DNA from: Tribonema minus
Taxonomy: Eukaryota; Sar; Xanthophyceae; Tribonematales; Tribonemataceae
DNA: 64,000 bases
Direction of reading: 5' to 3'
Assembly: GCA_017506865.1 (NCBI GenBank)
Contig: JAFCMP010000109.1
Span: 124,001-188,000 of the forward strand
In this document: positions 935 through 37,540 of the stretch, piece after piece
Numbering within the stretch: position 1 is the first letter of the stretch
Layout of the letters: each line of letters begins with the position of its first letter
Program-made: the position numbers and the translations under genes
Notes under the pieces: generated by a model
What the model saw: the letters and a program-made list of their open reading frames with translations, nothing else
The model's database searches: none
What the model was told of the DNA's origin: nothing

Positions 935-3900
935 ATGCCGTCCCCAGAGGAGGATGAGGCAAATCAGCAGCAAGCGCCCCACCGACGGACTGCGCCCACC
1001 ATCTCGCTGCCGCCGCCACTGGCTGCGCCGATATGGATCCAGCCCGCTGCTGCCAACTCACCCAAGAAGAGCTTTCCTGCGCCGCCTGGCGGAGGCGCAG
1101 GTGCCACTGGTGACTTCGACAAGGTGGCAGACTACTTCTCTGTCATCGGGTCGAGGCCAGATGGCGTGCTGGAGCTGCTGGAGCCGGAGCAGCACACCCC
1201 AGAGGCGCTGAGGGAGGCCTGGGGCAGCGCCATCACGGACATTGCTGTGGTGAGGCCGGGCAAGGGGGAGGTGTGCCCGGAGGGCTATGAGCTGATAGAG
1301 GCGACGGCGGCGGGGGAGCACAGGGCGGACCTGAACCACGGGTCCCTGCACAGGAGCGTGTTTCTCGCCGTCCAGAGGCAGGCCGTGAGCAGGAGGTACG
1401 TCCCGCGCGAGAATAAAGTCAGGAATGCAGGTGGAATGACGGGCAGTGTGCAGCAGTCTAGACGCGGTCCGCCCGCATGCCACCGCAGCTGCAATGTGCG
1501 CCAACTTTAACAGCCGCGCCATTTATGCTGTTTTGCAAGCAGCTGATGACTTTGTTGGCTGTTGGCGATGCATTGCTGGGCCGGTGCACTGACAGCACTC
1601 AGTGCTTAGGCGACACCAACAGCAACATCAAGCATGTGCGGGATTATCATGCCAGATGCCAGGGTTAAGTGTGCCCGAAGGGAGCTGGTCGTGATCATTT
1701 TAGGTGTAATACAGGGACGCAACCAGCAACAGCTTAAATGGTGTGCTGCAAACAGCCAAGAGGGCAGATTCACCATGTTTGCAGCAGTTGAAGTTCACAA
1801 AGTGAATTGTAGAGGTGCTGACAGGCGCTGCAGCCAAGAAACTGACGCAGGGCTGGGCCATTGCACATTCATGTGCTGCTACTGCACAATGGTGTCAAGC
1901 GCGCGGCTGGGCTGTGTACGACACCCCAGACTGACGTTGACTCGCTATTCAATGTTCAGCACTGCCAACGGGCGCTGCATACCACTGGCCTCGCCAGTCT
2001 ATGATGCGCGCAGTAGCAGAGCTTGGTTTAGACTCTGAGTTATGGCTGGCGCGGCTGTGCCTTTGACTTGACAGCCGCCTGTCGCTGTTGAAGGCGACTG
2101 TTGTTGTCATCCAACGCCAATACCAACAGGAGGGAATGATCCTGGAGGTCATGCTTATGCATGTTTAACGGGTGTTGCAGCAACCTGCGGTGCAGGGCGG
2201 GCTCTGGCTTGACTGCTCAGTGGCACAGCGTGTGCCTCTGAGGCGCGCCGCATCGCCGTGTAGTGGTGCGACTGTTGCAGGCGCTCTTGACTCGGTCTAG
2301 GCCTGTTGCGTGGCAGCGCTCATCATGAGCTGTAGAGCACCGCACGAGGTGCTGCCGTCGATCGTGCGGCGCGGCGCTGCTGTGAAAATGGCTTGAGACT
2401 CGTTGGTGTGATTCTCATATTGTAGGTAGCCGTCCGGTTGGGCAGGCGAATGAGGAGCGCTGCCGCTCGCTACACTAGCAGCACAGCTCGACCGCTGATG
2501 CAGCATCAACATTGCGTGCAGGCTTACGGCCTAAGGCTCAAGATCACTGTTAAAGAGTTTTAAGTTTCGCCAACATGGACTGCTTGGCACTCGGCAGATG
2601 GCCCAGGACGAGCGCTGCTGCCATGCCACAGTGGCAGTGTTCATGGTGGCAGTGCTCATCACCAGAGGCAGCACTGCAGTGCAGCTGCAGAATGAGCTCT
2701 CTCATTAACGGTCTGCAAGGCCCATTCCCAAGCTGGGGGGGGGGGGGGGGGGCACCCCCTATATGCAGCGCCCAGCGCTACCGGCGTCGCGCTGTCGCGC
2801 CCGCAGACGCCGCGACCGGCAAGCAATCGCACACGCACGACTCAGCTCGATCTGCGCTGCCTTCCGCTAAACAACGCAGACAAAACGTCACCAAATAGCG
2901 CACTACCCTGTCTCTCGCCCCCGGCACTGGTAAACGTTCACACGATGCGTGGCCCAGCCCGGCGCTGCTCTGTACCGCCACCGCCGCTGCCGGCCAAAAT
3001 GGACTACATAGGTCTCTACGCGGCGCACTGTCTGAACGCCGCGCAGCGCGTTCTGCGAGTTTTGTGGAGTGCACAGTGTCCAATACTCACGCTTGCACAG
3101 ATCCCCATACTTCGAAGTACATAAATGCACACAGGCACAGCACAGCAAAGCTCAGCGCTGTTCCATCCCGCTGCCGCCGCCGCCGCTGTTGCCGCCGCCG
3201 CTGCCGCCGCCGCCTCCGCCGCTGCTGCCTCGCCGCCAGGATGGACTACATAGTGGACCTGCAGGTCCTGCCCGATACTTGCGCTTGCACAGATTCCTGT
3301 ACTACTTCAAAGTATATACATATATGCATGCAGGCCCAGCTCAGCCCAGCTCGACGCTGCTGCTGCCGCCGCCGTCGCCGCTGCCGCGCCAGGATGGACT
3401 ACGTCGCGGACCTGCAGGTCGTCTACACGGCGCACGAGGAGCTGCCGCGCGGCGCGGGGTGGGAGTTTGTGGAGCGCACGGCGTCCAATACTCACGCTTG
3501 CACAGATTTGCAGCCTAATCGTAAAGTAAACATATGCGCACAGACACAGCCCAGCTCAACGCTGCTGCTGCTGCTGCTGCTGCGCCGCCAGGATGGACTA
3601 CGTCGCGGACCTGCAGGTCGTCTACACGGCGCACGAGGAGCTGCCGCGCGGCGCGGGGTGGGAGTTTGTGGAGCGCACGGCGTCCGGGCGCAGCCGCGCC
3701 AAGCTCAACAAGGGCGGCGAGGCGGCGCTGCTGGCGGTGCGGCGCGTCGCGTTCGACGCCGTCGACGCGCCGCCCGCGGTGACAGCGCTCAGCGTCGTGC
3801 TGCCGGGGCGCGGCGAGGCGGCGCCGCACGGCTACCGCATCATCGAGCGCGACCTCAACAAGGTGAGCGCGGCGCGCAATGCAGCGGCAGCGGTGGGGGT

Positions 3901-6900
3901 GGCGGCGGTGGCGGCGCGGTGTTTAGACGCTGTGAGTCACTTCAATGGCGCTGATGTAGCGCGAGCGGCGCGCGGCGCGGCAGCAGCAGCAGCGCAGCAG
4001 GGCGTCAGACATCATGAGCGGCAGTACAGGCTGGTGGTTTGTGAGTGATGCAGTCGCTGAAGGCGCCCAACGGCGGCGAGCTCGAGCTGTGTAGTAGCGG
4101 CCGTGCGCTGTGGCGGGCACGCGCAGTGTATGCAGTAGTGCTGCGCTGGCCGCATCTGCTGAGCACTGACTTGAGGCGGAGGCTGTCAACACGCATCGGC
4201 GTCAGCTGTCACGGCAGCGTCGTTGTGGCCACCCCAGCAGTTCGTGTACAGCCCGTGCGATCACTCTACGGCACGTGACACCAGGCAGACACCTCTGCTT
4301 TGGTGCCGCGGCCCCATGGGAGGCTGCGCTGCTAGTCACGCCTCGAAGCGTCGCGCGCTTGTGCTGCAGGGGAGCGGCGGCAGTGCAGCGCCTGCACGCG
4401 CTGTCGGCGCGGCTGGCCCGCGTGTGCTGCGGTGATGCTCATCAAGTGTAGGTTGTGGCAATAGTTCGATGCTCAAGGCTCAACCAGCGCGTGCGGCAGC
4501 AATGCCTGCCCTGCCGTCTTTGGCACTGTCAGCAGCCGCGCCAGCGAACGGCGCCCGCGCCGTGAGCGCTTGCGCGCGAGCGCTGAGCATTGCGCTGCGG
4601 GCACAGTGTATATGAGTTTCACGCTACGCTGTGCCGGGGTACGCACTCAATCTCGGCTACAGAATATTGCTCTGGCGTGCCCTCGACGCGCCGCCGTGCC
4701 TTCAACCCCCATCTGCCCCCCCCCCCCCCCTTCAAAGCCCTTCCCTGCAACGTGCCCCCGTGCACTCAACGCCCATCTGCCCCCCCCCCCCCCCCCTGCA
4801 ACGTGCCTCCACACTCGCCCACGGCGCAGGGCAAGTTCGGTGACGTCGTGCTGCTCGCGTACCAACTCGGCCCGCCCTTCAGCGTGTGCCGCTTCCCCTA
4901 CAAGTCGGAGATCCTGGACCGCTACCCGCAGGTGGACAGCCCGTCGTCCGCGTTCCCGCAGGACCAGCTGCCCATGTTCGTGTACCCCAAGGGCGTGCTG
5001 CTGGAGAACAGGTGCGTTATTGGATGGTGGAAGCGGTCGATCATCAGCGGCATGTCGAGTTTTCATCCAGCACCCATAGCTGGAGGGTGCCTCTAGCAGT
5101 CCAAGCTTTCGCCTATGACTTTCACAGCTAAAGTTTTAGTCGACCTCAACTGACTTCATCATCCCGCAGGACCAGCTGCCCATGTTTGTGTACCCCAAGG
5201 GCGTGCTGCTGGAGAACAGGTGCGTGCGTGGATGGCAAAGACCCCCGGTCATCAGTCGGGCTTTTGCAAGTCGACTTTAATCCCGCTTCCATAAGTGAAG
5301 GCTGCCTCCAGCAGTCCAAGCTTTCGTTTCCAGCCTTTGATAGTGAAGATTCAATCAACTTTAACTGAAACCGGCATCCCGCAGGACCAGCTGCCCATGT
5401 TCGTGTACCCCAAGGGCGTGCTGCTGGAGAACAGGTGCGTGGGTACGTAGGTACGTAGGTACACTCAAAGCTTTCACTCCAACTTTCATGGCTCAAGTTC
5501 AAGACAACTTTTAAGTGAATACATCATCCCGCAGGACCAGCAGCCCATGTTCGTGTACGCCAAGGACGTGTCATTGGAGAACAGGTGCGTAGGTAGACAG
5601 ACGGCGGAGGCGGTCTGTCGTCAGTGGCGCTCCTGTATGTTTTTACCCACCTTCCTTAGCTGAAGGTAGCATCCACCGTCACAGCTTTCATCTCCAACTC
5701 AAATAGTTCAAGCTCCAGTCAATTTCAATCGAACTCACCATCCAACGTTTTCGCTTTACTCTCTGGGCGGCAGCTTGTTGCTTGTAGTGTACCGTGAGTC
5801 CGTGACGCCGGAGAGAGCAAGTCTGCGCCACCGATACAGCAGGGGGTGCTTTTGAATTTTGTGAGTCGCGCGTGTGAGTCACTTTCCCCCCCTCCACGCC
5901 CCCGCAGGGCGCGCGAGGACGCGCTCAAGCTGTGCTACTTCACCTTCGTCTTCGCCAACTTCAGCGGGCACCGCACCTCAAATGCCTAGTCGCACCGCAG
6001 CGTCCATCGCGCATGCGGAGCCGCTTGGTGACCTAGGGGTTACCCTGAGCACTGCTGCCACCTCCCCCCGCAGAGCGCGCGAGGACGTACCCAAGCCGCG
6101 TTACTTCACCTTTGTCTTCACCACCTTCAATGGGCACTGCACCTCAATTGCCCAGTCGCACCGCAGCATCCATCATACGTGCAGCGCCGCTCAAAGTCAC
6201 CATAAGTGTGGTGACAACGCTTAGCAGTGACCACGCTGAGCACTGCTGCCGCTCCCCCCGCAGGGCGCGCGAGGACACGCCCAAGCCACGCTACTTCACC
6301 TTTGTCTTCACCGACTTCAATTGGGCGCCGTGCCCCAATGCCGAGTCGCACCGCAGCATGTGTCGCGCGTGCGGAGCCGCTCGGTCATCTAGGGATGACA
6401 TTGCTGAGCACTTCTGCCCCTCCTCTGCAGGGCGCGCGAAGACACCCCCAAGCCGCGCTACTTCAGCTTCGTCTTCACCAACGTCGACGGGCGCCGCACG
6501 TACGCGGCGTGCCTGACGTTCCACGAGCCGGTCCCCGACGCGGCGGTGCGCAGGCTCACGCGGCACCTGCGGCTCGACAGGCTGGCGCGGGGGGGGGGCA
6601 GGGGGGGGTCTGGGGGGTCGAACGGCGCGCTGAACGGGAGCAGCCACAATGGCGCCGGCGGTGCGAAGGAGGACCTGCTGTCCAAGGTGCTGGTCGCGCC
6701 GGCGCAGCAGGTCAGTACTCAGCATGGGGCCTGATGCTAGGCTGGCGCGTGCGCATGCAGGTTCTGGCTCTCGGCAGGTAGGTAGGTATGTGCGAGCGCA
6801 TGCGCCGTTCGCCAGAACGCTGACATCGGCTGACCTAACCCCGACACCCTAACCCTTTCCCTAAGGGGAACAAGGTGAGGAAGGCGTGCAGGAGGGGACC

Positions 6901-9900
6901 GCAGTCAAGCGGTGCTTGTGATGGGGGAAGCGGCATTGATGCGCAAGTCTGGTGTGGCCTATGGAGCACTGCCTTGCCCCGTGCGTCGCGTGCCGCCCAT
7001 GCGCCCTTCGCCCGCAGCTCCGCGTGACAGCATCGCGCGACTGGGACGAATGCGCACGCGGGTCAGCTACGTCTGCTGCGCTCCGTGCTGCTGCGCGCGT
7101 CGGCTGCGAGTGCGCTGCCGCTGCTGCCACGCCCGTTGAAGTCGCCCCGCACCCTCTTTGGCCGCACACGAGTACCTCTGCGTCGCAACGCTCACGCCCG
7201 CCGTGCTGTTGCCCCCGCCCGCGCCCTGCGGCCGACCTGTCTCCTTTCGCAGGACCCCCGCCGCTGCCTGTTCGCGCCCAAGACCATCTGCGTGATCAGC
7301 CGCTTCCCCGTGTACAGCGTGCTGCGGCGCTTCCTGCGCCACCTCTACGCCATCAGCCTCAGCCTTGCGGACGTGCCGCTGGAGCGCTACATCAGGTGCG
7401 TCAACGTAAACCCAACTTCAACCCTCACTTCAACCCTAGCCGTTACGCCATAGTAGGGGCTGCATACTGGAGCGCAACATCAGGTGCCCCCCCCCCCCCC
7501 TGCCGCTCGCCCTAATTCAAAGGGTCACCCCACAGTAGTGCGGGTGCATCAGCTGAGCCGCCGCTGCTTCGGCCGCAGGCACGTTCCCGTCCACAGTCCC
7601 TGCATTCGCTCCGCCGCTGACACCCTGCCCAGCGCCCGCGGTACGCATGTGCGACAATGACGCCAACGTCCGCCCTCTCTGCCGCCGCGCCGCCGCCGCT
7701 GCCGCCGCCCCCTCGCGCAGCACCTTTGTCAGCTGTTAGAAAGAACTGTGTTCCTGCCACTTTTGAATTATAGGCGATGCGGTACGCGCACGCAACGACG
7801 ACGACGCCAACATCCGCCCTCTCTGCGGCCGTACCGCCGCCGCCGCCGCTGCTGCCGCCCCCTCGCGCAGCACCTTTGTCAGCTATGGAAAGAACTGTGT
7901 TCCTGCCACTTTTGAATTATCGGCGATGCAGTACACGTGTGCGACACCGGTGCCCAACGTCCGCCCCCTCTGCCGCCGCGCCGCCGCCGCCGCTGCCGCC
8001 GCCGCCCCGCGCAGCACCTTTGTCAGCTGCGTGCCCATGCCGATCCCCGGCGGGCGGCGCCTGCGCGTCTACCTCAGCCCGCTAGAGGGCGGCGACGGCG
8101 GCGGCGCCGTCGACGCGGACGCTGCCGCCGCCGCCGCTGCTGCCGCAGACGACGGCGGCGGCGGCGGCGGCAGCGCGCACGGCGCCGCGCGCAGCCGCCT
8201 CAACCCGCTGGAGCTCCTGTCGCCGCCGCACCCGTGGCTGCCGCTCATGGACGTGGACTTTGGCGCGCCGTTCCGCTGCCTCAGCGTGCCGCGTGCGCTC
8301 GCGGCGTTCGGGCTCGTCCTGCAGGAGGCCAAGGTGCTGTTCATCTCGAGCCGCGCGGAGCTGCTGACGCAGGTGCGTGCGTGGCGATGCTCAGCAGCTT
8401 GAAGTGCGCGCAGAGGTGCTGCCGACGCAGGCGCGCGCGTGGTGTTCGACTTGAAGTGCGCAGACGTAGGTGCGTGGTTGAGGTGCGAACAATGATGCAA
8501 CAGCCCGCTGACGCAGGTGTGTGAAGTTACAGAGCAAGAGGCGGGCATAGTTGACGTGTGAATGACGCAGCTGGTGCGTTGCCTGGCTCCCTTGACCCGG
8601 GAGCGGAGGCGAACGAAAGCGGTGCGCCCCCCACGCTTGAAACGCGTCCAAGTCTCTTGAAGTTTGCGCCACTCAACCTCAGTACGCCCTTGCCCTTCCC
8701 CCCAGGTGATGGAAGCGCTGCGCAGCCTCGCCTTCCAGCGCCGCCCCCCCTCACACACGCTCTGAACGTGTCAGGGTTACTTGAACCTTCCGTGACTCAA
8801 CTTCAATTTGTCATTGCCCCCCCCCCCCAGGTGATGGAGGCGCTGCGCAGCCTCATCTTCCCGCTGGAGTGGCAGAGCGTGTACGTGCCGCGCCTGCCAC
8901 GCGCGCTGAGCGGCTGCCTCGAGTGCCCCGGCGGCTTCATGATCGGCATGCACCTCACGCAGGCACGTCACGGCTTGAACTTTGCCTGCGCACGCTTCGC
9001 CAAAGCAGACAACAAGTGGCACCTGCTGCGCTTGCCCGGCGCTACTGCACAGTGCCAGCTCGTCGCCGTGTCGTCCGCACGCTGCATGCGCAGGGGGTCT
9101 CGAGTGCACGAGAAATCGAGCAATGTTGACTTTGCTTAAATGCAAACCTCATCACAATGTCTGGTTGTCGGGAATTGAAGTTTGCGCAGCGGCCGCGCGC
9201 CGTCTCGCTTTACGGTGCGGGCTCGAGCGCCCGGACGGATCAATGACTGGCGCACACACTATGCGCAGGCACCTCGTGCGCTGCCATCTCTTCTAGTAGC
9301 GCTGGGTACTTGAAGTCATGGGGGTGCGCGGCAGCGTTGCGCTGTGTTACCACATCGCATCGCATGACGCCCTCGCACACGTATTGTAGACGTCGAGAGG
9401 CGGCCGGAGTCACATTGGCATGCGAATATGATCGCCGGGTCAGAGTTGGCATCAGGGTTAGGTAGGGTTAGGGTTAGCTGTCGTACATACATACTGGCGC
9501 ATCAAAGCGCCCCACGTGCCGCCACTCGCGACCGTTTCTCACCGCAAGCGTCCTCGATCACCGCACGCACGCACCCCCACCGCAGGAGGAGCTTTCCATC
9601 GGCACCGCCGCGATCGTCCGCGACCTGGGCCTGGAGGGCGTAGCCAACGCCGTTAACCTCGACATGGGAGAGGTGGGGCCCGCGCACACGCTCTCAGTCG
9701 ATGGTTACCCGGTCCAATGTTCCCTGTCGCACGTGTGTGCGATGTACGACCGGCCGGAGGCCTGTCATTGTTCGCTTGCTAGCGGCGGCGACCGCCTTCT
9801 CGCCGCCGGAAAGGCAACTCAGCGCCGTCGCATGTCCACTCCCGCTGCGGCCGGGGAGAGGCGGGGGTGCCGCGCGTGCTGCCTCCGCACACGCGTCTCC

Positions 9901-12900: not shown

Positions 12901-15900
12901 GCACGCCTCAGGCTCAGAGTTGGACGTCGCAGCGCAGCGCTCATGTGTGTGATGCGTGGAAAGGCACAGCGGTCAACACAGCGCAGCCCGCGATGCCCAC
13001 GCACAAACACGCCAGCTTCAGTTGGTCGGTGTTGTGTGCGCCTGAGAGTGCGTCGACGGTCGAAGTATGCGAGTGGTGCGCTAACCCTACCTCAAAGGCC
13101 TGAGTTGTCGTTACATCACAACTAACCTCTGAATACCTCTCATTTTTACGGTGGTCTCTGTCACGGCTGCGGTTCTCGGCGGCATAACTGCTTTTTTGGC
13201 GGCAACTGTAGGCTGCATTGCGCATTACTACTTAGATGGAGGTGGTCAATGAGCCGTGAGCGCACGTAATTCTTGTATCCCGCCCGCGGCGCAGCCATCA
13301 CGCTCAGCAAAAACTGTGTAACCGCTTGCGAAGCCAATGATGGTTGAGTGTGTTGTCAAGTGCTCTCGACCAGGGGGAGAACTGCGAAGTGTGGCAGGCG
13401 CGGCTGCTACACGCGCCGTGGTCAACGGCACGCCCGGGCCTTGCGAGTTGGCGCCGACCCTCCCCCTTACTGCCCTTACAGCGTCATGCATACTTTTCCA
13501 AAGTTGCAATACTTTCGCCGCGCTCACACACCCCTAGTTTGCCCCTAATGCCCTTTCTGCACGCATCCTATCTGTTATCAGCTACGCCCGCCGCTGCGCT
13601 CACCCACAGCAGCCCGCCCCCCTCGTGCACGCGCGTGCCGTAGCCGTGACGGCAAGCCCCCTCTGCGCCTGCCGCATTGACCTGATCTCATACATTTCTT
13701 CAGTTGTCGCTGCTGCTGCCTTGAACTCTGCCTCACACCCCGTCTCTCGCGCTGCTTTGCTGGCCTCTCCCGCCGTGCGTGCGTGCGCACAGCCTCCTGC
13801 ACACGCTGCCGCAGCCGCTGCTGGGCCGCCTCAGCGAGCGGCTGCGCGTGGATCTGTTTGACCGCATCGGCCTGCGCCTGGGGTCGCAGGCAAGTTCAAG
13901 TTGTACTTCTATGGATACTCCACTTTTATATGCGCTTGGCCTTATAAATGTATCAATATTGAGGTATAGCTTTTAAGATGATGCACAATTGGCCGCCTCA
14001 GCGAGTGCCTGCGCATAGACCTCTTTGACTGCATCGGCCTGCGTCTGGGGTCGCAGGGAAGATCAAGTGGTTCATCCATGGATACATTACATGCGCTTGG
14101 GCACATGCTTGATTTTGAAGTATACTTGAACATGATAAAGCTGCTGGGCCGCCTCAGCGAGCGGCTGTGCCTGGACCTGTCTGACCGCATCGGCCTGTGG
14201 CTGGGGTCGCAGACATCCATAATACGCTGGCCATGTATTCGTGCTTGAAGTATCCTTCACGCGCAGAAGGGACCGAAGTGCCGAGTCATGTGCTTGTTGT
14301 CTCGCATGCCCGCTACACCGAAGCAACAACACAGATGTATGCATACACACATGTGGTGCGTGTCTTGCACGACGCGCATCAACTAATACTTGCCCTAACC
14401 CTAACCCTAGTGCCCAACGGCCGCAACTGCACTGACGTCCTGGGCCCACTTGCTCACGTAGCACATGGCACCAAGTAGAAAGGGAACAGGCCTCAAAGAG
14501 TGTGAAGTTTTTGCGAAGAGTCTGCGGTAGGCAGCAGCATGCGCATCATTCCTTGCTTGGCACTGACCAGAGAGACTAGGCACACAGCCGCAGCAGGGGG
14601 GGTGGGTGGGTGGGTGGGTGGGTGGGGGGGGGGGGGGGCAATTGTTCACATAGCACATGGCGCCAAATAGGAATGGGGCTTCTGCATGACCCACTAGCAC
14701 GTGCGCGCGCGGCGTACTGCCCGCTGGCCTACCCCCAACCCTTCTTGCCTACACCAAACTTGCCCCCCCCCCCCCCACAGGAGGACGTAGACCAGTTTGA
14801 GAACGCGCCTGCAAAAACTTCAAGAATCGAAGTATGTATCTGAAGTAGGGTCAGTTGTTGAGGTGTATCTGTTCTCACCTAGCGGACAACGCATGCGGGC
14901 CACCTTACGTCTCACAAGCGCGCGCGTGCCCCCCCCCCCCTGCAGGAGGATCTGGACCAGTTTGAGAGCGCGTTTGAGTTTGCGCCGATACCGGACATGA
15001 GCGACAGCACCAGCGCCGCACGCTGGCGCCCGCACTTCTCCTCCACGCGCATCAAGAGGTATGTATGTACGCGCCTTACCCTAACCCTAATCATAATGTA
15101 ACCCTAACACCTAATGCTGGCGCCCGCACTTTTCCTCCACGCGCATCAAGAGGTATGCATGTATGTACGTGCAGCTGTTTCCTGACCATGTAACTGCGAC
15201 CTGACTGTATGCTACTCTGTCCGCGCGGAAGCAAGAAGCACGAACGCGCCTGACTCCGACTCCAACCCTAAGCCTAACCCTAGAAACTAACCCTAATCCT
15301 CAGCGTGGCCTACCTGCTCAGACCTACACCCTAACTCCATGCTGTTCGCACTGCGATGGTTTAGCTGCATGTCGCTGCGACGCTTTCAGTCAAACTTTCA
15401 GCACCCAGACCAGCATACTCTGCACACGTACTGCATTTCGGCAACGCCCCCCGAGGCGCGCGCTAGCTGAAGCAGTCATCCATGCCAGCATGCTCTTGGT
15501 CAGTACGCCAGAGGCGCAATGGCAACAAGGGCGCACACCACGCCCATGCTACAAGAGGCGCACACCACACCAATGCAATAATATGACTCTATCAGTCGAG
15601 TTCACAAGTCTGAGGCCATGAGTCTTTCTGCCGAAGCATTGCGCTGGACATCGGCTGCTGCACCAACCAGCACCAACCTGTTGCCGCGCGCGGCGGCGCC
15701 CGTTCAAGGTCCACGCAGCAACGCTCATCAAACGCCGCAGCAACGCTCATCGAACGCCGCAGCAATCGCCATCAGCAATCGAGCTTTCACGTCCAAGTGT
15801 CGCCATACGCACTCCCGATCACCGCTGACGAGCAAGTCGCTGAACCCCCCCCCACCCCACCCCCCACCCCCCCATCCCACCCCCTTCTCAGCGGCGGCGC

Positions 15901-21900: not shown

Positions 21901-24900
21901 GATGGACAGCACGGCGCTGCCGCTGGTCATACCCGGGCCCACCAAGGTGAGCGCTAAACCGCGGGTGCGTGTGCCGCCTCCCCATGCGCGACACGGCCGC
22001 TGTGTACAGCTACACTTTGAAGCACATGCATATCTTTGCAGTACACGACATACAAGATGTGTATGTACCACTGCGCCCTCGCACCGCGCGCGCCGCAGCC
22101 GGACCTCCCCGCGCGTTACGCACAGCTACTCTTTGAAGCATATACATATCTTCACAGAAGATGATCAGTATTTGAAGCACATCATATGTATGCACAAGAT
22201 GTACGTGTCTTACATGTACCTCTGTGCCCCCGCACCGCATGCGCCGCAGCTGGGCCTCCCCGCACGCGACGCCGCCGCCGTGTACAGCTACGCCAACGGT
22301 TGGCCCACACCGCTCAACAGGGACCTGCTGCGCACGCCGCCAGAGGCGCTGCCCGCCGTCGTTTTGAAGTTGCAGACATACAGGTATGCCGCCGTGGCTA
22401 GGGCTAGGGTTGGGGTTAGGGTTGGGGTTAGGTTCCCGAGGCCTGATTCTAGGGGTAGCTGCGCACTCCGCGCTTGCTTTTGGCCACCCCCTCTGCTTGT
22501 CTTCCCTACCAGCTAGGGCTCTGCCGCTGTGTGCCTTCTAGCCTGGTAGTGCATTGGCCTGATCCGATAGACAATGTTCGCCTGCTTGGTACCTGTTGGT
22601 GCTCTGCTGCAGCCGTGTGTGCCTTGGGATCCTGGCCTGTGCCGACGCACAAGTCATGCTTCTCGAGTTGCCTTACGCAGCGCCTTGCATTCTGCTGCGC
22701 GGCGCCCGCTTCCTAACTGCTGCTCGCGTGATGCGTACCGCCTAAACCCAGCCCTAACATTAGCAGCGGCGACCACGGTCATTGGTGGAAGGCACTTGCG
22801 GCTGACCATCCCTTGTCACCTAGGGCTCTACAATCTTTTGATTTGTTTTCATTAGCGATATACTCCACCGCTGCTTACCGCGAACCTATTCTAACCGTAC
22901 ATGCGGACTGAAGACGCAATCCACCGCGAACACCTATCCCCTTCCTGCCGCTCTTGTTACGCGCGCAGCCTCGCTTACCGGGAATTGCACGGGCGCCGGC
23001 AGCACGGCAGAGGCGCTCCGCTGGGGACATCCCTCATGTATGGGTAAGTATTACGATCGCGACTCATGAAGCTAGCAGTCAGCTAACAACAGTGGGTCGT
23101 GTCTGGGGATGTCCCTCATGATGTCCCTCATGTATGGGTCGGTATCTCAAGCACCTCAAAATACTGTGAATCAATCGCAAGCGATGGTGTACAAACGAGA
23201 GATTTTGATGGCAACGGTCACCCACCTGCTCCACGAGCACAGGTCGCGTGCGTTGCTGGAGCGCTGCTGTGATGACTCGACAGCTGGCGTGATGTCCCTC
23301 AGCGTTAGTGTGTGCAGCCGCGCGCTGCCATGCGGACAGCCCCTGTCTTCATTCCGGCAGAGGACGCCCCGTGTTTGCTGACATTGCCAGCCGTCGGAGT
23401 ACATGTGTATGGCCGCATCAAGCGCTCCACCAAGGAATGTGCGAGTTGGAGTACTGCATCATCTGCCCATTGGCGGCGAGTTCAGCCCGTGCGGTGCTGT
23501 CCGCGGCGACCACACGCGCGCTTTGTGAAGATGCAGCGAGCGCCTCAACTGCCCTGCCCCATTGGAGCCGTTCTGACATGTTGCTGAGCAACGCTGCCTC
23601 CTGCTGCCCCCCTCTGCGAGCGCGCCTTAGGTACCCTGCCCCGGCGAAGCTGTTCTGATATACCGCCGTCTGCCCACTGGCAGTAAATTCAGCTCTGCAC
23701 AAGCAGTTCTCGATTACCACACACACACTCCGCAACGGTCCAATGATGAACGGTGCCTGAGGTGTCCTGCCCTGTTGGCCCCGTGCTGATAGATTACTGA
23801 GCAGCGCTGCCCCCTACCCTCCTGTCTGTTTCTCCCCGCGCGCAGCGATATTGAGCCGATGGTCGTGATGCCGCTGGAGGCCTTTGAGGCGTACGGCGAG
23901 ATACCCCGCAGCAGCGATGCTCAGCGGCTCAACCTCACGGTGAGTCACGCTGCATGAACTTCAATTTGAAGTTCAACTGCCCACCGCCTTTTCATCCCCA
24001 CCTCTGTTGTTGAATGGGACTTCAGCGTGCTGGAGTCCGCCTCTCACGTGCCCCGCATCCAAATGCTGTATACCTGCCTCAAGGCGCAGCGCGAGACGCG
24101 CCTCGTGACTTGTCTACGTGTCTTACCGCTGGCCACGACTGCACTGTAGCGAAACACACCTGCGCTTGTCGACAAGTCGACATGGAAGTCTACTTCACTT
24201 CAGGATCACGCGACAACTTCCCTTGTTCCCCCAGGTCCCGTACACGAGCCTCCAGGCACGGCGCAAGGCGCGCCTCGTGGTGCATCTGCGTGTCGCACCG
24301 CTGAGTGCGGCCTCACAGCGGGCCGCGCACCTGCGCTCATCGAACAATCGCCTGGCAATTCATTCACATTGAACATCACTTCCGCCGCTCGCTCAGGTCC
24401 CGTACGCGAGCCTCAAGGCGCGGCGCAAGGCGTGCCTCATCATCTACGTGTCGCACCGCTGGCTGCGCCCGCACGGCGGGCCGCGCGGCGCCGCGCCCCA
24501 CCCCGATGCCCCCGCGGGCGCGAAGCACGCGCTCATCTGCGACGGCGCGCGGCGCCTGCTGGCGTCGCTGCCGCTGAACGCCGCGTCGGCGTTCCTGTGG
24601 CTGGACTACACTTGTATAGACCAGGTGCGCACGCAGGGGGGCTGAGGGTCTTATGTAACAGCCATGCCTCAAACGCTAAAAAAGCTTGCACACTGAAGTG
24701 TTTTGACTACTGTGGATATGGTGGCGCTGTTTGACTCGTGGCGGATGACTGCAGCAGCGGCGACCACGGTTATTTGTGGCAGGCACTTGCGGCTGACCAC
24801 ACCTTGTTGCCTAGAGCTCTACGATCTTTTGATCAGTTTCCATGTATGTTTGCTCGCCGTTGTGGTCTTCGCGGCGTTGGCGTTCCTATGGCTGAACTAC

Positions 24901-27900
24901 ACGTGCATAGACCAGGTGCGCACGGGGGGGGAGGGGGGGGGGGAGGGCGTGTGTTAGATGTATGCTCGCCGTTATGGTGTGTGGTGTGTGCGCGCGGCGC
25001 CTGCTGGCGTCGCTGCCGCTTAACTCCGCGTCGGCGCTCTTGTGGCTCGACCACACGTGCATAGACCAGGTGCGCGCGCGCGGTGGCGGCTGGCTGCGTG
25101 CGCTACATGTATGTTTGCTGTGATGGTGTGTGGTGTGTGCGCGTGGCGCCTGCTGGCGTCGCTGCCGCTGAATGCCGCGTCGGCGTTCTTGTGGCTCGAC
25201 TACACGTGCATAGACCAGGTGCGCGCGCGCGGTGGCGGCTGGCTGCGTGTGCTACATGTATGCTCGCCGTAATGGTGCGTGGTGCGTGTGCGTGGCGTCG
25301 CTGCCGCTCAGCGCGGCGCCGGCGTTCCTGTGGCTGGACTACACTTGTATAGGCCAGGTGCGTGGCTGGCTGCGCGTCTGATGCGTGCTCGCAGTGATGG
25401 TGTGTCGTGTGTGTGGGGTTGGGTGTGGTTTGACGGCCTTGCTTTCTGTGTATGGGGCATGCCGTTTGAGCTGGTCGACTTTGTGTCCGCATTCCTGTGG
25501 CTGGACTTCACGTGCTTAGGCCAGGCGCGCGTCTGAAAGTAAGCCTTTTCACCATGTAGGCAGGCCTGCCGTTGAAGGAGCCTCTGCAAGGCCTGAACAC
25601 ATCGAGAGCTCAAAACCAAAACGACTGATGCAATGTAACGTACAGAAGCAGTGGCAGATGGGATACACTCTAGCTTCAGCCGCATGCCCCATGGCACCAG
25701 CGCGCCGCTTGCTGCATGCGCGCTCAGCGAGATCTGCCGTGCTTCAGTGCAGCCGCAGCGAGCAGGGAGCTCCCCACACTGAGCGCTGTGATGCTGAGCG
25801 ATGCTGAGCATCGAGGTGTGCGAACTACAAGCAGTGACGTCACAAGATAGCGTTTTTGTGTCATGAGAGGCACTCAATCACAAACATAATAAAGAGGAGC
25901 GGCGGATTGAGCCATTTCAATGAAAGCGTCCCGTGCATCCTCGATATGCGAATGACCAGCACAGGGTCCCAGCGTCAAGCAGTGGCGCTGAAACCAAATG
26001 GTCCCCTGGTCCTCTCATGCACTCACGCTCCCTCTACGGCCTCCGCTGCGTGCCCTCTCAGGACGACCCGAAGCGCCGCAGCAGCGGCATACAGAGTCTG
26101 CCCTCATATGTCGAGCGCTGCGACGCGCTGCTGATACCGTACACGTCGGAGGCGCTAGTGGAGGGCGGCGCCGCCGCTGCTGCTGCCGCTGCCGGCGCGC
26201 CGCCGCCGCGACGCGCCCCCCCTGACCGTGACGACCAGGCGAGTCGTGCCGCCGGTGATGGTGTGTGCGTGTATGTTGCATTGGCGCAGCGGGTCGTCGA
26301 AGCGAAATGTGTAGTGTCAAATGTGATGTTGTGTCGGCGCAGCGAGTCGTTGGAGCGAAGTGTATGGACTCGGAGCTGCGCGGAGGCTGCGACGCGCTCT
26401 ATCGCGGGCGTCAGCGCGTAGCGCTCAGTGCAACTTCAATCAATCATTTGAACTCAGTAAACGATGCACTTGTCATGGGGTCAGCGCGCACGCTGCGGCT
26501 GGAACATGTAGCGATGCACAGCGGCGCGGGGAGGTGACACACAAGAGTGCATTGGGCTCTGGTGGCAAGTTTGACTTCGGGCACCTGGGCTGTTTCACGC
26601 CCTAAAGCACGAATTTGCTTACACAAATCGCATTGGAGTAAGTGGGAGTACACAATGGTGCAGCTCAGCGGTCGCAGCACGAGAGCCGCATGGTCGGTGC
26701 AATGTCGTTGGCGGAACTGCGCCACTTCTCAGCACAAGTCTGACTGTGCCGTGTGTCCAGCCGTTGCTCCTCACGGGATGACAGTGCCGGTGGGCGACTG
26801 CCACGGCGACAGTTGCGTTGACAGGCACCTGTGCGACATCCGCCCATAGGTAGGTTGGTATACTCACGTGCCCGCTGCTGCTGCTGCTGCTGCTGCTGAC
26901 ATGGTGGCTGGTGCTTGTCCGCGGTTGCTCGCTGCTGCAGAGCATCAGCAGCCTGGAGAGGTCGCACCACCGGCGCTCCAGCACGGCGGGGACGCTGAGC
27001 CGTGCCGACGAGATGAGGTATGTAGGTATAGCGTATGTATGCGTAACTGCCATGTGCGCAACTGCCGTATGCGGGCGAGCGCGCGTTTGACAGGCGCTTG
27101 TGAGCGTGTGCCGGCCCGCCTGGCGTCTTCAGCGATGGCTGCAGCGATGGCTTTGCGTAACTGCCGTAACTGCTGTGCTCGGTACTGCGCGGTCGGCGAG
27201 CGCTTGCGAGCGTGTGCCGGCCTGCCTGGCATTTTCAGCGATGGCTGCATCGATGGACGCGGTGCCGGTGCAAGTACTTCAATGAGAAGATGAAGTGTGT
27301 TGCTGCGCTGAGTACCTGAGTCGAGCGCCTGTGGAGTGTATATAATGGCACTCTTGACAGTGCTACAGGGCTTGAAAGCCAAGTCTCCACACCTTAGACG
27401 ACATGATGCTTTTCCGACATGGTCGGTACAATATGTCGCGACGGTGCCGTCAGAACTCATGTCGCGACACAGTCGCGCGCCGCCTGCCCAGTTCATGTCG
27501 TCTAGACGACGGCGTTGACGCACCGTTCGTTGCGTTCATGTCGTCCATTCACGACACCGTCGCGCAAGGTTGGCGCTCTTCATGTTGTCTCATGTCGTGT
27601 ATGTCGTAGCATGTGGTGTGTGCACATCAGTGCACACAGCACTGATTCCGCGGTGGCTTGCCGCAATCAGAGCGTATTTGCAATGGCGGACAACACTTCC
27701 GCAGGCTCTGATCTGATCTCTGATTACTCACGCTGCATCGTGATGATTACGTCAAGCTCGGTGTATTTGTCAGTGATCCCGAAAAGGGCCTCATCACGTG
27801 AGGTACGAGAAGATGGTGGGAGCTGGTGCTGATGTCGGTGATACCGCGATACGCCCCAGAGGCGCTCTGCAGTGAATCCAGGGCCCAATCAGCCAGAGCG

Positions 27901-30900: not shown

Positions 30901-33900
30901 GGGTTAGGGTTAGGGTTAGGGCGTCCGCGCGCACAGCACCGCTTGGAACGGGGTCGTCTGCTGCAAACGGTTACATCAGCGGCGCTCTCGTGCAACGCGC
31001 ATTGATGTCGCTGCGCACAGGAGGCACAGCGCATCGCCCTCGTACTCCGCATGCGCAAACCGTTTTTTTGTGATGTGCAGCTTCCGTCCATGCCTCGGCC
31101 ACATTACGGGGGCGCCGCCGCAGGCAGAAGCAGCGCCGCATAGGCGTGGTGCTTCTCGGTATACCGCTGCCACATGCTGAGGTTGCTTCAAAGCCCGGCA
31201 CGCTTTTGCTACCCCTTGCCCCACCCCCCCCCCCCCCCTCCCCGCCCCCCCTCACCTCCTCTAGATACCCCCCCCCATGCCCCCTGCCACCCCTCGCAGA
31301 GCGGGCCCGCATTCTCATCGGTGCCCGGCAGCACCGCCGCCGCCGCCGGCAGCAGCAGCGGCGGCAGCGGCGCCGCCAAGGGCAGCACCAGCTTTGCCTC
31401 AGCGCTCGGCGCGGGGTGGCCGGAGCTGTACACATCGCTGGCAGACTACGCGTCGCGCGCGTGGTGCCGCTGCGAGCTATTCATGGCGACCGCGGTGCCC
31501 ATGCCGCCGGAAGGTGCGTGTGTACGCATGTATGTATGTGTAGGGTTGGGGTTAGGGTTAGGGTTAGTGTATGTATGGACGTATGTATGCATGGATGGAT
31601 GGATGCATGTATGCACAATATTTAGCGGCAGCAGCAGCAGCTGGTGGGAGGACAGGGGGGGGTGCAGCGGGCCGGATCTGTGCTGTGCATGCGTTGCAGT
31701 AGGTCGGAGTGCGCGCGATGGCAGTGCGCATGCGCGCGTTGCGTGCGAGGTCGTTCTTTTGTGCGACCCGGCGCCTGCTGCTAGGGGTAGGGTCAGAATT
31801 AAGGTAAGCGCCGGGCGGTGCCTGCCTCAAAGTGACGTGGGCTTGAGGCTCAGAAATGGCTACGGCACAAGTATACGTGGAAGTAGTTGATTATCTGTGG
31901 TACACGCGCAGCGGATATGAGCGGAGAGGGTGTGTGTGCGTGTGGCCTCTCATTGTCCATACTCAGCCTGTCCCAGTTCCATTGCTTTGCCCGTGCTCAT
32001 CCTGTCCCATTCCACTGCGCTCTTTCCTCTGTTTCCACTCATTGGTGCATGTAGTTGCCATCTCAGCGAGCCAGCCCACCAGACCATGCAGCGCCGCTGC
32101 GCTGCACCTGTCCCTTCTTCCCACATTGTTTCCGCACAAACTCCTTTTCAGGCCCTCAACGACTCGCCACATCCTTTGTCTCTGCCGCACGCAGGCCTGG
32201 CCTACTTTGAGCTGTCGGCGGTGGCGCACCGTGCGGGCGAGCGGCCCGTGTTTGTGTACGGCCCGGAGCAGCGGGCCAAGGGCGTTGGGCCCGTCGTGCT
32301 GCCGCGCCTCGACAAGGGCTGGTTCGAGGCAAGTTTTATTTCCGTTTATCCAAGCTCGTACTGTACAAGGGGTGCTTTGACACCCGATCCTCTGCTAGCC
32401 TTCCCCCTCATACTCTTTGAAGCATTATGCTTCCTTCAGGTGGCTTCAAGGGCGTCGGCCCTGTTGTGCCGCCGCGCCTCGGTGGGTCAGTGTGAGGCGA
32501 GTGCAGCGTCAATAAAAGTTATGTACCGAATTATTTGTCGACCTACTAAGGGAGGCTTCAACACCTGATCTTCCTTTAGCCTTCCCCCTCGTTGCGATTG
32601 GGGGTAATGTTTCTTTCGTGTAGCTACAAGGGCGTCGGCCCCGTCGTGCTGCCGCGCCTCGACGAGGGCTGGTTCGAGGCGAGTGCAGCGTCAGGGGAAC
32701 AGGCGTATGGAGTAGAATGTGAAGTTTCTGCGGAGAGACTTCGAGGGAACCAGCAGCGTAGTGTCATCACTTGTTGTCTGGCACAGGCCAACAACACGCG
32801 GCACGTAGCTGAAGCAGAGCCCTAGCTGGTAGGCAACACAGAAAGCATGCCCGCCAGTGCAGCGTCAAAGAACAATTACTTGTCGACCTTTTAAGGGGGG
32901 CTTGACTACTGTGGATATGATGGCACTGTTTGACTCGTGGCCAATGACTGCAGCAGCGGCGACCACGGCCATTGACGGAAAGCACTTGCGGCTAACCGCC
33001 CCTTGTCACCTAGAGCTCTACGATCTTTTGACTCGTGTCCATCACAAGCTGAGTATCAGCCGAAGTCTGCACGTGTGCAGCACGCTCGCATGCACCCCCC
33101 CCCCCCCCCGCCCCCCACGTGCAGTCCGCCAACCCGAAAGGGGGAGCGCGGCGCTGGCTCACAAGCTGAACATCCGTGCACTTACTCACACACAACCCCT
33201 CCCCCCCCTCCCCCTCCCCCCTGACTTGCAGGCCGGCAACCCCAAAGGGGGAGCATGCTAACGCCCAAGCCGAGCATCAGCAAAACTACGTGCATCTACT
33301 CACCCGCCCCCCCCCGCCCCCCCCCCATCTCCAGGCCGCCAACCCCGAGGAGGGCGCGCTGACGCACGAGTCGGACCGGCGCGGCATCTGCGCGCTCGTG
33401 ACGCTCGTGCGCTGCGCGGCGCCGCCCGCGCCCAAGCCCGGCTACACGGGCCACCGGCGCCTGTGGTGGCGCCACGGCCGCGGGCGCATGGTGTTTGACG
33501 ACGGCCGCGTGTACGACGGCGAGTGGAAGGTGCGCGCTGATGCTCAGCAGGGTGCGAAGGGGGGGGGCAGGGGGGGGGGGTCGCGCTGAGCGGTCTGGAT
33601 AGTGTCGAGGCCGCGTTTGACGATGGCCGCGTGTACGACGGCAAGTGGAAGGTGTGTGCGCTGATGTTCCGCAAGGGTGGGGGGTGGTGGGGGGGCTCTT
33701 GTTTGCACTGAGCGGTCTGGATTAGGTGCTTACTGAACAAGGGGCGGTGGCTGCTGCTGTGGTGGCGCCACGGCCGCGGGCGCATGGTGTTTGACGATGG
33801 CCGCGTGTACGACGGCGAGCGGAAGGTGCGCTGCTGAGCCGATCAACAGGCGGCACTGGGTAAACCGAACGTTTCCGCAAGCATTCCACGGTTCTGCTGC

Positions 33901-36266
33901 GCAGCCAACTCTTGCTGTCCTTCGCTTCGCTTCGCGCGCTGCCGCAGCGCCGTGCCGCGCCGCGCGCGTGCCTAGTCGCGGATCCCACGACAACTTCACA
34001 GACTTCACGTTCTACTGCACATCTGATTCCTGTCATGCTCATGCCTCGTTGAACTGTACGCTGCCACATCGCTGCCACATCGCCTCGCGCACGCACGCGC
34101 AGGGTGGCCGCGTGCACGGCTACGGCGTCATGGAGTACAGCCGCGGCAGCAAGTACTCGGGCGACTGGCGCCGCGGCAAGAAGTGGGGCAAGGGCATCAT
34201 GGTGTACCCCGACGGCGCTTGCTACGACGGCTACTGGCAGGCAAGTTTTTACTTGTCCGTGCGCGTGGTCAGCGCTGGTGGGGGCAGAGTTGAAGTTGGT
34301 GAGGCAGAGTTGAAGTTGATGGGGCAGAGTTGATGTTGATGGGGCAGAGTTGATGTTGATGCAGAGCTGAACATAACCGCAGCGCCTCACGGTCCGATCC
34401 CGTCCTAGAGTCCTCTAGTCTAGTGCCAGCAGATGAGACCCCAGCGTTGGGCCCGGATGAATTGGTTGCCCTGCAGGGGGAACTCTGTGCGAGCAGTGCG
34501 TATGGACGCACAGTCAGCTGTGAGCAGTGTGACTCGATACGTGTTCTTTCGTGAGTGCGCCACACAGCATCGGTACCGCACTCGGCGGTCCCCGGTGTGC
34601 GCCCCCGCTGACGCTACGGAGGTGCCAGTGCTCTCTGTCGGATCAACAAATGCCCTCCGCGCTACTCGCGCAAGCAGGGGCACCAGCTATGCCTACCGTG
34701 CGCGTGCGGTCGCTGCGGCGCGCCGGGGCAGCCAGCTGTGCAAGCGTTGTTGAATGTACAATAGCACAGCCTGAGCCGTGGTGAACTTACATGCAGTGTG
34801 TGCGCATGCACATGCGGTCTTGCACATTGCAATGTGCGGGCGGCACCTTCAGGGCTCGGCAGAGGCGGCACTGCTGCGTGCACCCCACAACTATCAAAAC
34901 AGCGCTCAACTTGGCCCAGACCAATGTTCAATACTTGCACAACCATCAAAGCACTGCTCAACTAGCCCATAATCAACGCCCTGTACTCCCACCACAGAAA
35001 CCAATACTCCGCACTCACATAATCAACAGAGCAGCGCTCAACTAGCTCCCTGACCAACACCCGCTCTCGCACTCCAGACTGCCTTTACAAGACCCCCCCC
35101 CCCCCCCCCGCACCACCTCTACAGGACGGACGGCGCCACGGCTTTGGGCGCTACGTGTATGCGACCGGCGCAACGTACGAGGGCCAGTGGGAGGACAACC
35201 ACATGCACGGGCACGGCGCCTACACGAGCGCGAGCGGCAGCAGCTACACGGGGCAGTACCGCCGCGGCAAGCGCCACGGCGCCGGCGTCATGCGCTTCCC
35301 CGACGGCCGCGTGTACGACGGCGAGTGGGGCGGCGGGCTGCGGCACGGCCGGTGCGTGGAGCGCTGCTGCCGTGTGGTTCAAGAACTACTTCAACATGTG
35401 AACTGACGTGTGAAATGACACTTGTGTTGTATATGATAGTGGTGCATGTACGACGACGAGTGGGGCGGCGGGCTGCGCCACGGCCGGTGCGTGCGTGGAG
35501 TGCTGCTGCCGCTGTGTACTTCAAGCAGTACTTCAACTTGTGAATTGACGCTTTTATAGATAGTCGTGGCATCAGTTGAGCTCGGCGAGTGGGCCGGCGG
35601 CCTGCGCCACGGCCGGTGCGTGGAGCGCTGCTGCTGCTGCCGCCGCTGTGTACTTCAAGAACTAATTCAACTTGTGAAATAAAGCTAGTGGTGGCACCAA
35701 TTGAGCTCGGCAAGTGGGGCGGCGCGCTGCGGCACGGCCGGTGCGTGGAGCGCTGCTGCTGCTGCCGCCGCGTACTTCAAGAACTGCTTCAACATGTGAA
35801 CTGACGTGTGAGAATGACGCCATGTATACATGATAGTGGCACCAGTTGAGCTCGGCGAGCGGGGCGCAAGCACAGATGGTGGAAGACACTTCGCGCCTTA
35901 ATGCCTGCCGCGCCTTCATGGCATGATGTCTTGAGTACGCAGCCGCCGTCAGCAAGCGCGCCCCAGCGCAACATTACAGAAATATAATGAAACAACAGAA
36001 ATGAAAATGCTGCACGATGCTCGCTGCTGCTGACGCGCGTCCTCCCCCCCGCCCCCCCTCGCCCCGCCGCCGCCGCCGCTGCCGCCGCAGGGGCACTTAC
36101 ACATTGACGGACGGCAGCGTCTTCGTTGGCACTTTCGTCGCGGACGCGCGCCACGGCCGCGGCATGCTCACCGCCGCCGACGGCCGCCGCGTGCTGCAGG
36201 AGTGGCGCGACGGGCGCCTTGTTCGGCAGCAGCCGCTCGCGGCGGCGCCGCCCGACTCCGGCAGCA

Positions 36267-37266: not shown

Positions 37267-37540
37267 TACCATAACCTCATACCCACTTGAAGTTGCCTAG
37301 CTTGGAGTTTTTTGGGGGGGGAGAAAAAAACATGCCATGCCAATCGCTCCAATACCAGCAGTATGTAGTGTATGCCAAGCCTTCCACGGGGACGATAGAG
37401 CGGCAGCGGCGCTTTACTTCTTGCAACTCAGCGCTCGCTTCTTCTTTTTTTTTTTTTAGATTTTGAAACTTCAAAGGAAGTTGTTGTTGAAGTTCGTGAG
37501 GCTGAAAAATCTCACCAGCCACTCAAGCAGTAGACACAAC

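What the first reader, a model, noticed from the sequence alone, without database searches (positions are those of the whole stretch)
2999..35740. Introns filled with decaying tandem copies of their own splice junctions
At about 20 exons the 5' part with its acceptor is repeated upstream, or the 3' part with its donor is repeated downstream, at roughly 100-240 base spacing. Copies always lie within the intron, include intron sequence on the far side of the junction and range from near-perfect to barely readable. The same occurs in the minus-strand gene (51316, 53680, 56953). This points to an ongoing process that enlarges introns by tandem duplication across exon-intron borders. Transposition would not leave head-to-tail copies centred on splice sites.
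Basis: partly seen in the sequence, partly recalled or inferred. Interest (0 to 1): 0.88.

Follow-up and report, generated by a model that had tools for sequence, protein, structure and literature searches.

The report
Introns growing by copying splice borders
In this alga many introns hold broken, mostly head-to-tail copies of the exon edge and splice site beside them, apparently made by small tandem duplications that lengthen introns without changing the protein.

Summary
In 33 introns placed by homology to myosin, without regard to repeats, 9 of 33 upstream exon ends and 10 of 33 downstream exon starts recur inside their own intron, above the 99% level of a cross-gene null. Short-range repeats are overwhelmingly direct (234 against 1 inverted pair at 60-300 bp offset, palindromes not counted). 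Three window arrays used as queries found no copy away from their own locus. Copies carry random-type coding changes, so they are not kept as alternative coding exons. Small tandem duplications that straddle a splice border explain most of this. A border hotspot is not shown: repeat coverage is flat across introns; junction families (23 of 27) exceed a 55% null (P 0.001) but not the 72% expected for old copies (P 0.09). Simple decay is incomplete: between copies, exon edge and donor core stay alike while the next intron bases do not, although many flanks remain alignable. In two paralogue pairs each copy matches its own gene's exon, once with a clearly shared breakpoint, suggesting exon-to-copy exchange. 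Known kind (internal tandem duplication), unusually intense, with a possible concerted-evolution twist.

The parts
3592..3862 (+). exon with start codon; its acceptor and 5' part are copied upstream at 3393-3452 and 3240-3267 (a further remnant near 2998 by eye)
   Evidence: 60 of 60 bp identical in the nearest copy
4830..5011 (+). uDENN exon, donor after 5011; 3' part plus donor copied at 5162-5219, 5377-5434, 5527-5584
   Evidence: all three copies keep GTGCGT; copy 5377-5434 is 58/58 identical although its flank is not
6431..6710 (+). exon; acceptor and 5' part copied upstream at 5908-5967, 6075-6133, 6264-6318
7652..8029 (+). acceptor family of the DENN exon starting at 8015, copies near 7720 and 7870 (mostly intron side)
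   Evidence: fails the exon-edge score
8706..8739 (+). copy of the acceptor and start of the DENN exon at 8831
13817..14215 (+). donor family, exon end 13889 (GC donor), copies 13997-14056 and 14153-14212 (both lost the donor dinucleotide)
14764..14972 (+). acceptor at 14946 with an upstream copy at 14764-14807
   Evidence: fails the exon-edge score
15022..15163 (+). donor family, exon end 15058, copy 15116-15152; filler between them holds TTAGGG-like repeats
16734..17272 (+). donor family, exon end 16796, four copies (16835-16894, 16954-17013, 17088-17136, 17228-17272)
17519..17820 (+). acceptor family, exon start 17801, upstream copies near 17519 and 17660
   Evidence: by eye; fails the exon-edge score
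19628..19973 (+). acceptor family, exon start 19906, copy 19699-19756 that lost AG
21069..21595 (+). acceptor family, exon start 21554, copies 21163-21219 and near 21370
21613..21955 (+). donor family, exon end 21696, copies 21771-21828 and 21894-21946
21976..22287 (+). acceptor family, exon start 22250, weak copy 21976-22013 without AG and another near 22100 by eye
24059..24486 (+). acceptor family, exon start 24397, copies 24235-24298 and 24076-24122
24545..25535 (+). donor family, exon end 24624, five copies (24870-24915, 25010-25069, 25159-25218, 25298-25357, 25470-25524), with mosaic site patterns by eye
32277..32693 (+). donor family, exon end 32328 (GC donor), copies 32437-32481 and 32627-32678
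33095..33373 (+). acceptor family, exon start 33335, upstream copies
   Evidence: fails the exon-edge score
33461..33837 (+). donor family, exon end 33529 (MORN-like exon by eye), copies 33606-33651 and 33766-33825
35309..35866 (+). donor family, exon end 35351, copies 35444-35486, 35583-35615, 35708-35740, all keeping GTGCGT
51302..51417 (-). minus-strand donor and its intronic copy
53610..53978 (-). minus-strand repeat family with TTAGGG-like filler
56956..57346 (-). minus-strand donor family (exon end about 57277, copy ending about 57082)

Best explanation
Introns here lengthen by repeated small tandem duplications, mostly 60-240 bp apart, of local DNA. Shown: copies are direct, local, inside the intron, include the exon edge and splice site, and differ between paralogues. 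Inferred: they arise by error-prone repair of staggered breaks (fill-in of both overhangs, then end joining) or by replication slippage. A unit that straddles a splice border is tolerated because the exon-proximal site still gives the same mRNA, whereas a unit inside an exon would change the protein. With short introns most random units straddle a border. Inferred with less certainty: afterwards exon edge and copies exchange sequence (gene conversion or unequal recombination), so the block that selection holds fixed in the gene, exon edge plus splice-site core, stays alike while intron flanks drift apart.
For: Homology-defined introns: 9/33 donor-side and 10/33 acceptor-side exon edges recur in their own intron above the 99% cross-gene null; top reverse-complement scores 27 and 32; exon 70-120 bp inward 1 of 66 above threshold. 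At 60-300 bp offset 234 direct against 1 inverted pair. Two window arrays match only themselves in 158 Mb; a third matches itself plus its own fourth copy. Paralogues differ: L027 intron 3 has a donor copy, L028 intron 1 none; L027 and L028 hold acceptor copies with different ends at one border. Changes in copies 151 synonymous, 195 non-synonymous, 3 stop, about as for a neutral copy plus synonymous exon drift (my calculation). Exchange: L023/L024 intron 2 copies share the junction gatagata|ggcgcgg, yet each carries its own exon's bases at three clustered sites; L029/L030 copies likewise match their own exon. Copy against copy, 12 donor families: exon 0.87, core 0.71, flank 0.37, P 0.007 for core against flank.
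Against: Some pairs have 0-1 exon differences with 15-25% diverged flanks, which duplication plus decay alone does not give. Against the exchange step: over the 25 pairs with alignable flanks the deficit is modest (92 exon mismatches against 135 expected) and several pairs fit plain decay or run the other way; anchored extension still runs more than 60 bp into the intron in 26 of 65 exon-copy and 17 of 53 copy-copy pairs, stopping within 8 bp in 17 and 18; for acceptors the copy-copy step is not significant (5 families, P 0.125); of four comparable paralogue cases one is mixed and one independent. Border preference is neither shown nor excluded. No RNA, no strain comparison, no direct mutation data. 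Copies were found through their exon side, which favours good exon sides.
Confidence: 0.62

Rival explanations
1. Duplication is targeted to splice borders: something about the border (RNA-DNA hybrids, stalled polymerase, nicks) makes breaks there, so units are centred on it.
For: 23 of 27 families in 33 introns involve exon sequence against 55% expected from geometry and detection. The donor motif peaks just inside the right end of similarity in random, myosin and window sets.
Against: Coverage by repeats is flat from the border into the intron interior. If ancestral introns were only 130-300 bp the geometric share would itself be 70-100% (inference from unit size and residual intron lengths). 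The right-end peak can follow from constraint on the functional site, and the acceptor motif shows no matching peak in the random or myosin sets.
Confidence: 0.18
2. The copies are functional: alternative, mutually exclusive or poison exons, or decoy splice sites kept by selection.
For: Exon-like block and core better kept than flank, also between copies. Many copies keep good sites: GT in 28 and GC in 5 of 42 donor copies, AG in 18 of 23 acceptor copies. Stops are slightly fewer than random, 3 of 349 against 3.2%.
Against: Codon-position pattern is near that of an unconstrained copy; 18 of 65 framed copies have indels in the exon part; GT is less kept than its neighbours between donor copies; far ends of copies generally lack a partner splice site (by eye), with exceptions such as the copies of 5011.
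Confidence: 0.1
3. Introner-like mobile elements or minisatellites that happen to carry splice sites.
For: Head-to-tail arrays; a dispersed 91-bp repeat lies in some of these introns.
Against: Three array queries found no copy outside their own locus (the search scores only best candidates and skips very common words); each family repeats its own exon's sequence.
Confidence: 0.03

Closest known systems
Internal gene duplication (Gao and Lynch 2009; seen only as a reference in PMC3443670, content recalled)
   Same: tandem duplication of segments inside genes that include exon and intron parts
   Different: here it leaves arrays of up to five copies at 18-19 of 66 homology-defined borders, inside introns; recalled values for other genomes are 8-17% of genes
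[quoted passage not shown]
   Same: duplication crosses an intron-exon border (potato) or coding sequence, and the copy carries inherited splice signals
   Different: there the duplication creates a new intron; here an existing intron grows and the copies appear unused
Small tandem duplications from fill-in at staggered breaks (PMC8355091, abstract and introduction read)
   Same: direct, local, small tandem duplications
   Different: its introduction speaks of short insertions under 100 bp; units here are mostly 60-240 bp; mechanism not tested here
Concerted evolution of tandem repeats (recalled)
   Same: copies of one array can resemble their own exon more than the orthologous copy
   Different: one member of the array is a coding exon edge

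Membership tests
internal tandem gene-segment duplication | direct, nearby copies of a segment internal to a gene | tested here: met
internal tandem gene-segment duplication | copies local, not dispersed | tested here: met
   three window arrays
intron gain by tandem duplication (AGGT model) | a new intron bounded by the two copies | tested here: not met
   upstream-exon copies are followed by more intron, not by the next exon
tandem alternative exons | coding frame and amino acids conserved in copies | tested here: not met
tandem alternative exons | copies spliced into mRNA | not testable with these tools
   no RNA data
introner elements | same intron sequence at many unrelated loci | tested here: not met
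   three window arrays
break-repair small tandem duplication | precise unit ends with little or no homology at the junction | not tested
   ends too diverged in most families; not measured
gene conversion / concerted evolution | copies match their own locus rather than the orthologous copy despite a shared ancestral breakpoint | tested here: inconclusive
   met in L023/L024 intron 2; L029/L030 similar but breakpoint sharing weaker; mixed in L023/L024 intron 1; L027/L028 independent

The most novel reading that the evidence does not exclude
Coding exon edges act as master copies that keep overwriting their intronic duplicates: exon edge plus splice-site core is homogenised as a block ending about six bases into the intron, so intronic DNA evolves in concert with an exon. 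If repair copies from the transcribed gene (DNA or unspliced RNA) at breaks beside splice borders, transcription and splicing would be shaping intron growth.
Probability: 0.15. Interest if true: 0.82.

Novelty: new variant of a known kind. Interest (0 to 1): 0.56.

Why it matters
How introns become long without transposons is poorly resolved. Here the steps can be read from copies of many ages at about three in ten homology-defined borders (19 of 66). It is also a natural experiment on splice-site choice: the intron after 5011, for example, carries three further copies with the same GTGCGT core and 51, 57 or 58 of the same 58 upstream bases, yet by protein continuity only the exon-proximal site should be used. 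RNA reads would show by what rule.

Tried and rejected
Telomere-like TTAGGG arrays as filler marking the duplication points: flanks of 40 such arrays are direct repeats no more often (4 of 40) than random positions (18 of 143). Rejected as a marker.

Alternative coding exons: rejected on the codon-position pattern.

Border as coverage hotspot: not supported.

Pure neutral decay: a half-flank-divergence model fits most alignable pairs but not all; 38 of 63 pairs had no alignable flank and could not enter that test.

Reciprocal test for ascertainment: copies found by exon side keep the flank in 15 of 66; copies found by flank keep the exon side in 17 of 32. The border position is misplaced in some of the latter, so that count is a lower bound.

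Organism: not identified. It has many light-harvesting protein matches, and the one I compared is closest in the PDB to fucoxanthin chlorophyll a/c proteins. Literature: eight searches. No listed title or abstract start reported introns filled with copies of their own splice borders; two searches returned no paper, and subscription journals are not held.
Full report
What is there. The window is part of contig C109 of a 158-Mb eukaryotic genome in 554 contigs. The plus-strand gene from about 3 to 36 kb encodes uDENN and DENN domains and, by eye, MORN-like repeats near 33-35 kb. Self-comparison of the window left 81 direct-repeat pairs (of 107 before filters) at offsets of 40-3000 bp. Reading the sequence, most pairs in the gene contain a donor with the preceding exon end, copied downstream, or an acceptor with the following exon start, copied upstream. 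I listed 20 such borders by eye; 16 of 20 passed a fixed alignment score.

Is it general? To avoid choosing introns by their repeats I searched the genome with the Pfam myosin head (96 exon matches), fetched 13 genes holding 68 of the 96 and placed 36 introns from profile continuity, reading frame and splice consensus; neighbouring matches more than 14 profile positions apart were skipped and one pair gave no intron. Three with weak sites were dropped, leaving 33. The last 50 bases of the upstream exon are found again in their own intron in 9 of 33, and the first 50 of the downstream exon in 10 of 33, above the 99th percentile of 898 comparisons with introns of other gene families; 8 and 6 of these exceed every null score. 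Reverse-complement scores stay at or below that level, and sequence 70-120 bases inside the exon passes in 1 of 66. By BLAST at E up to 0.001, 18 of 33 introns carry at least one copy of adjacent exon sequence, some weak, 14 have no repeat, and one shows only an exon-exon match. In 20 arbitrarily placed samples of about 10 kb, local direct repeats cover 0 to 59% of each. Without any gene model the donor motif is enriched just inside the right end of similarity in random, myosin and window sets; the acceptor motif shows no such peak at the left end in the random or myosin sets.

What kind of process? At offsets of 60-300 bp there are 234 direct and 1 inverted pairs; 206 of 309 direct pairs up to 600 bp have offsets of 60-239, pairs within one array counted repeatedly. 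That inverted count leaves out palindromic matches; a second count lists 17 inverted places in all held sequence, 12 of them palindromic. Two window arrays used as queries found only themselves in the genome; a third found itself and its own neighbouring fourth copy. This is duplication of local DNA, not transposition. The clearest exception to head-to-tail is a whole exon with both splice sites copied in inverted orientation at 28505-29098.

Are borders special? In 50-bp steps, the share of windows with a repeat elsewhere in the same intron is 0.27-0.30 at the exon edge, 0.12-0.43 through the intron (0 in the last bins, n = 3 each), and 1 of 66 at 100-150 bp into the exon. Of 27 repeat families in the 33 introns, 23 include exon sequence (my classification). 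A simulation of random 90-240 bp duplications in the 14 repeat-free introns, with exons constrained and the same detection, gives 0.50 before and 0.55 after detection, 0.72 for the oldest class. Against 0.55, P = 0.00095; against 0.72, P = 0.09. Shorter ancestral introns would raise the expected share further. So a preference is suggested, not shown.

Are copies used? Among 65 framed copies, mismatches by codon position are 9.5, 7.4 and 14.3%; 151 are synonymous, 195 non-synonymous, 3 stops, where random change predicts about 26, 70 and 3%. A neutral copy plus synonymous change in the exon predicts about this mixture (my calculation), so the copies are not kept as coding exons. The slight shortage of stops is noted. 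GT is kept in 28 of 42 donor copies, GC in 5, AG in 18 of 23 acceptor copies, roughly what the copy divergence predicts. Splicing of copies cannot be tested here.

Is it simple decay? In part only. Comparing intronic copies with each other, 40 bp of exon side have median identity 0.82 and 40 bp of intron side 0.52 at donors, where unrelated introns give 0.48; the exon side wins in 41 of 44 donor and 9 of 9 acceptor pairs. The fall is abrupt: by family, the last ten exon bases 0.87, donor core 0.71, bases 7-11 of the intron 0.37 (12 families, P 0.007); for acceptors 0.86, 0.93 and 0.52 (5 families, P 0.125); functional site against copy gives P 0.0005 and 0.010. Copies were found through the exon, but the core was not in the query, so the step from core to flank is not an effect of how cases were found. 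Yet flanks are not gone everywhere: anchored extension runs more than 60 bp into the intron in 26 of 65 exon-copy and 17 of 53 copy-copy pairs and stops within 8 bp in 17 and 18. Fillers between copies are full of gaps, 9.7 openings per 100 bases against 1.8 in the exon-like part and 19.6 for unrelated introns. In the 25 of 63 pairs with alignable flanks, exon mismatches are 92 where half the flank divergence predicts 135; single pairs are extreme (0 of 60 at 3393-3452, 1 of 58 at 5162-5219), others fit decay or exceed it. Introns here turn over fast in general: paralogues L023 and L024, with 13% fourfold divergence, have introns 22-45% different after alignment.

Exchange with the exon. In paralogues L023 and L024 the intron-2 copy begins at the same junction with the same filler, so it predates the gene duplication, yet at three clustered sites each copy has the base of its own exon. 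L029 and L030 show the same for an acceptor copy, with a less certain shared breakpoint. In intron 1 of L023 and L024 the pattern is mixed, and L027 and L028 hold independent duplications. In the window, the copy at 25298-25357 shares two exon-specific bases that its neighbours lack, while sharing another change with the next copy (by eye). Gene conversion or unequal recombination explains these; repeated duplication at the same ends, or non-coding selection, is not excluded.

Known work. Tandem duplication can create introns (PMC4974935 and PMC2891723, abstracts; PMC3443670, passages), internal duplications are reported as common (Gao and Lynch 2009, seen as a reference only), and small tandem duplications arise by fill-in at staggered breaks (PMC8355091, abstract and introduction). 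No listing of eight searches showed a report of introns lengthened by arrays of their own splice borders.

Verdict. Observation confirmed and general; duplication reading supported; border targeting unproven; concerted evolution between exon edge and intronic copies is the most interesting open point.

Noticed in passing
22762-22852, 24753-24843, about 29893 and 32950: A dispersed repeat of about 91 bp in introns; besides the query itself the genome search listed 39 places at 94-96% identity and one at 79%, out of 1684 first-look candidates of which 40 were scored.
   Followed up: partly
9463, 14393, 15078, 21309, 30900, 31549, 42915, 48557, 49015, 53597-53903 and random loci: Short interstitial TTAGGG arrays, 29 in 263 kb against 0 in simulated sequence; long runs of the same repeat lie at the starts of contigs C2 and C3, the only places listed. 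Not tied to the duplications.
   Followed up: yes
28505-29098: A whole exon with acceptor and donor copied in inverted orientation, both copies open in frame.
   Followed up: partly
13889, 32328, and by eye 8962 and 34240: GC donors appear frequent in this gene.
   Followed up: no
L029 about 3958-4657 and L034 about 4305-4917 (gene orientation) against L030 about 2012-2062: An intron at an AG|GT site present in two myosin paralogues and absent in the third; gain or loss not decided.
   Followed up: no
L024 2581-3291: A 710-bp fold-back sequence in intron 1; no such match was listed for the paralogue L023, whose intron is 885 bp against 1892.
   Followed up: no
27360-28290: Palindromic words such as TCGTCTAGACGA and TGTCGCGACA recur (by eye).
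   Followed up: no
37460-38788: Open frame of ankyrin repeats with HLEVLQWARANGCPW-type units and no visible intron.
   Followed up: no
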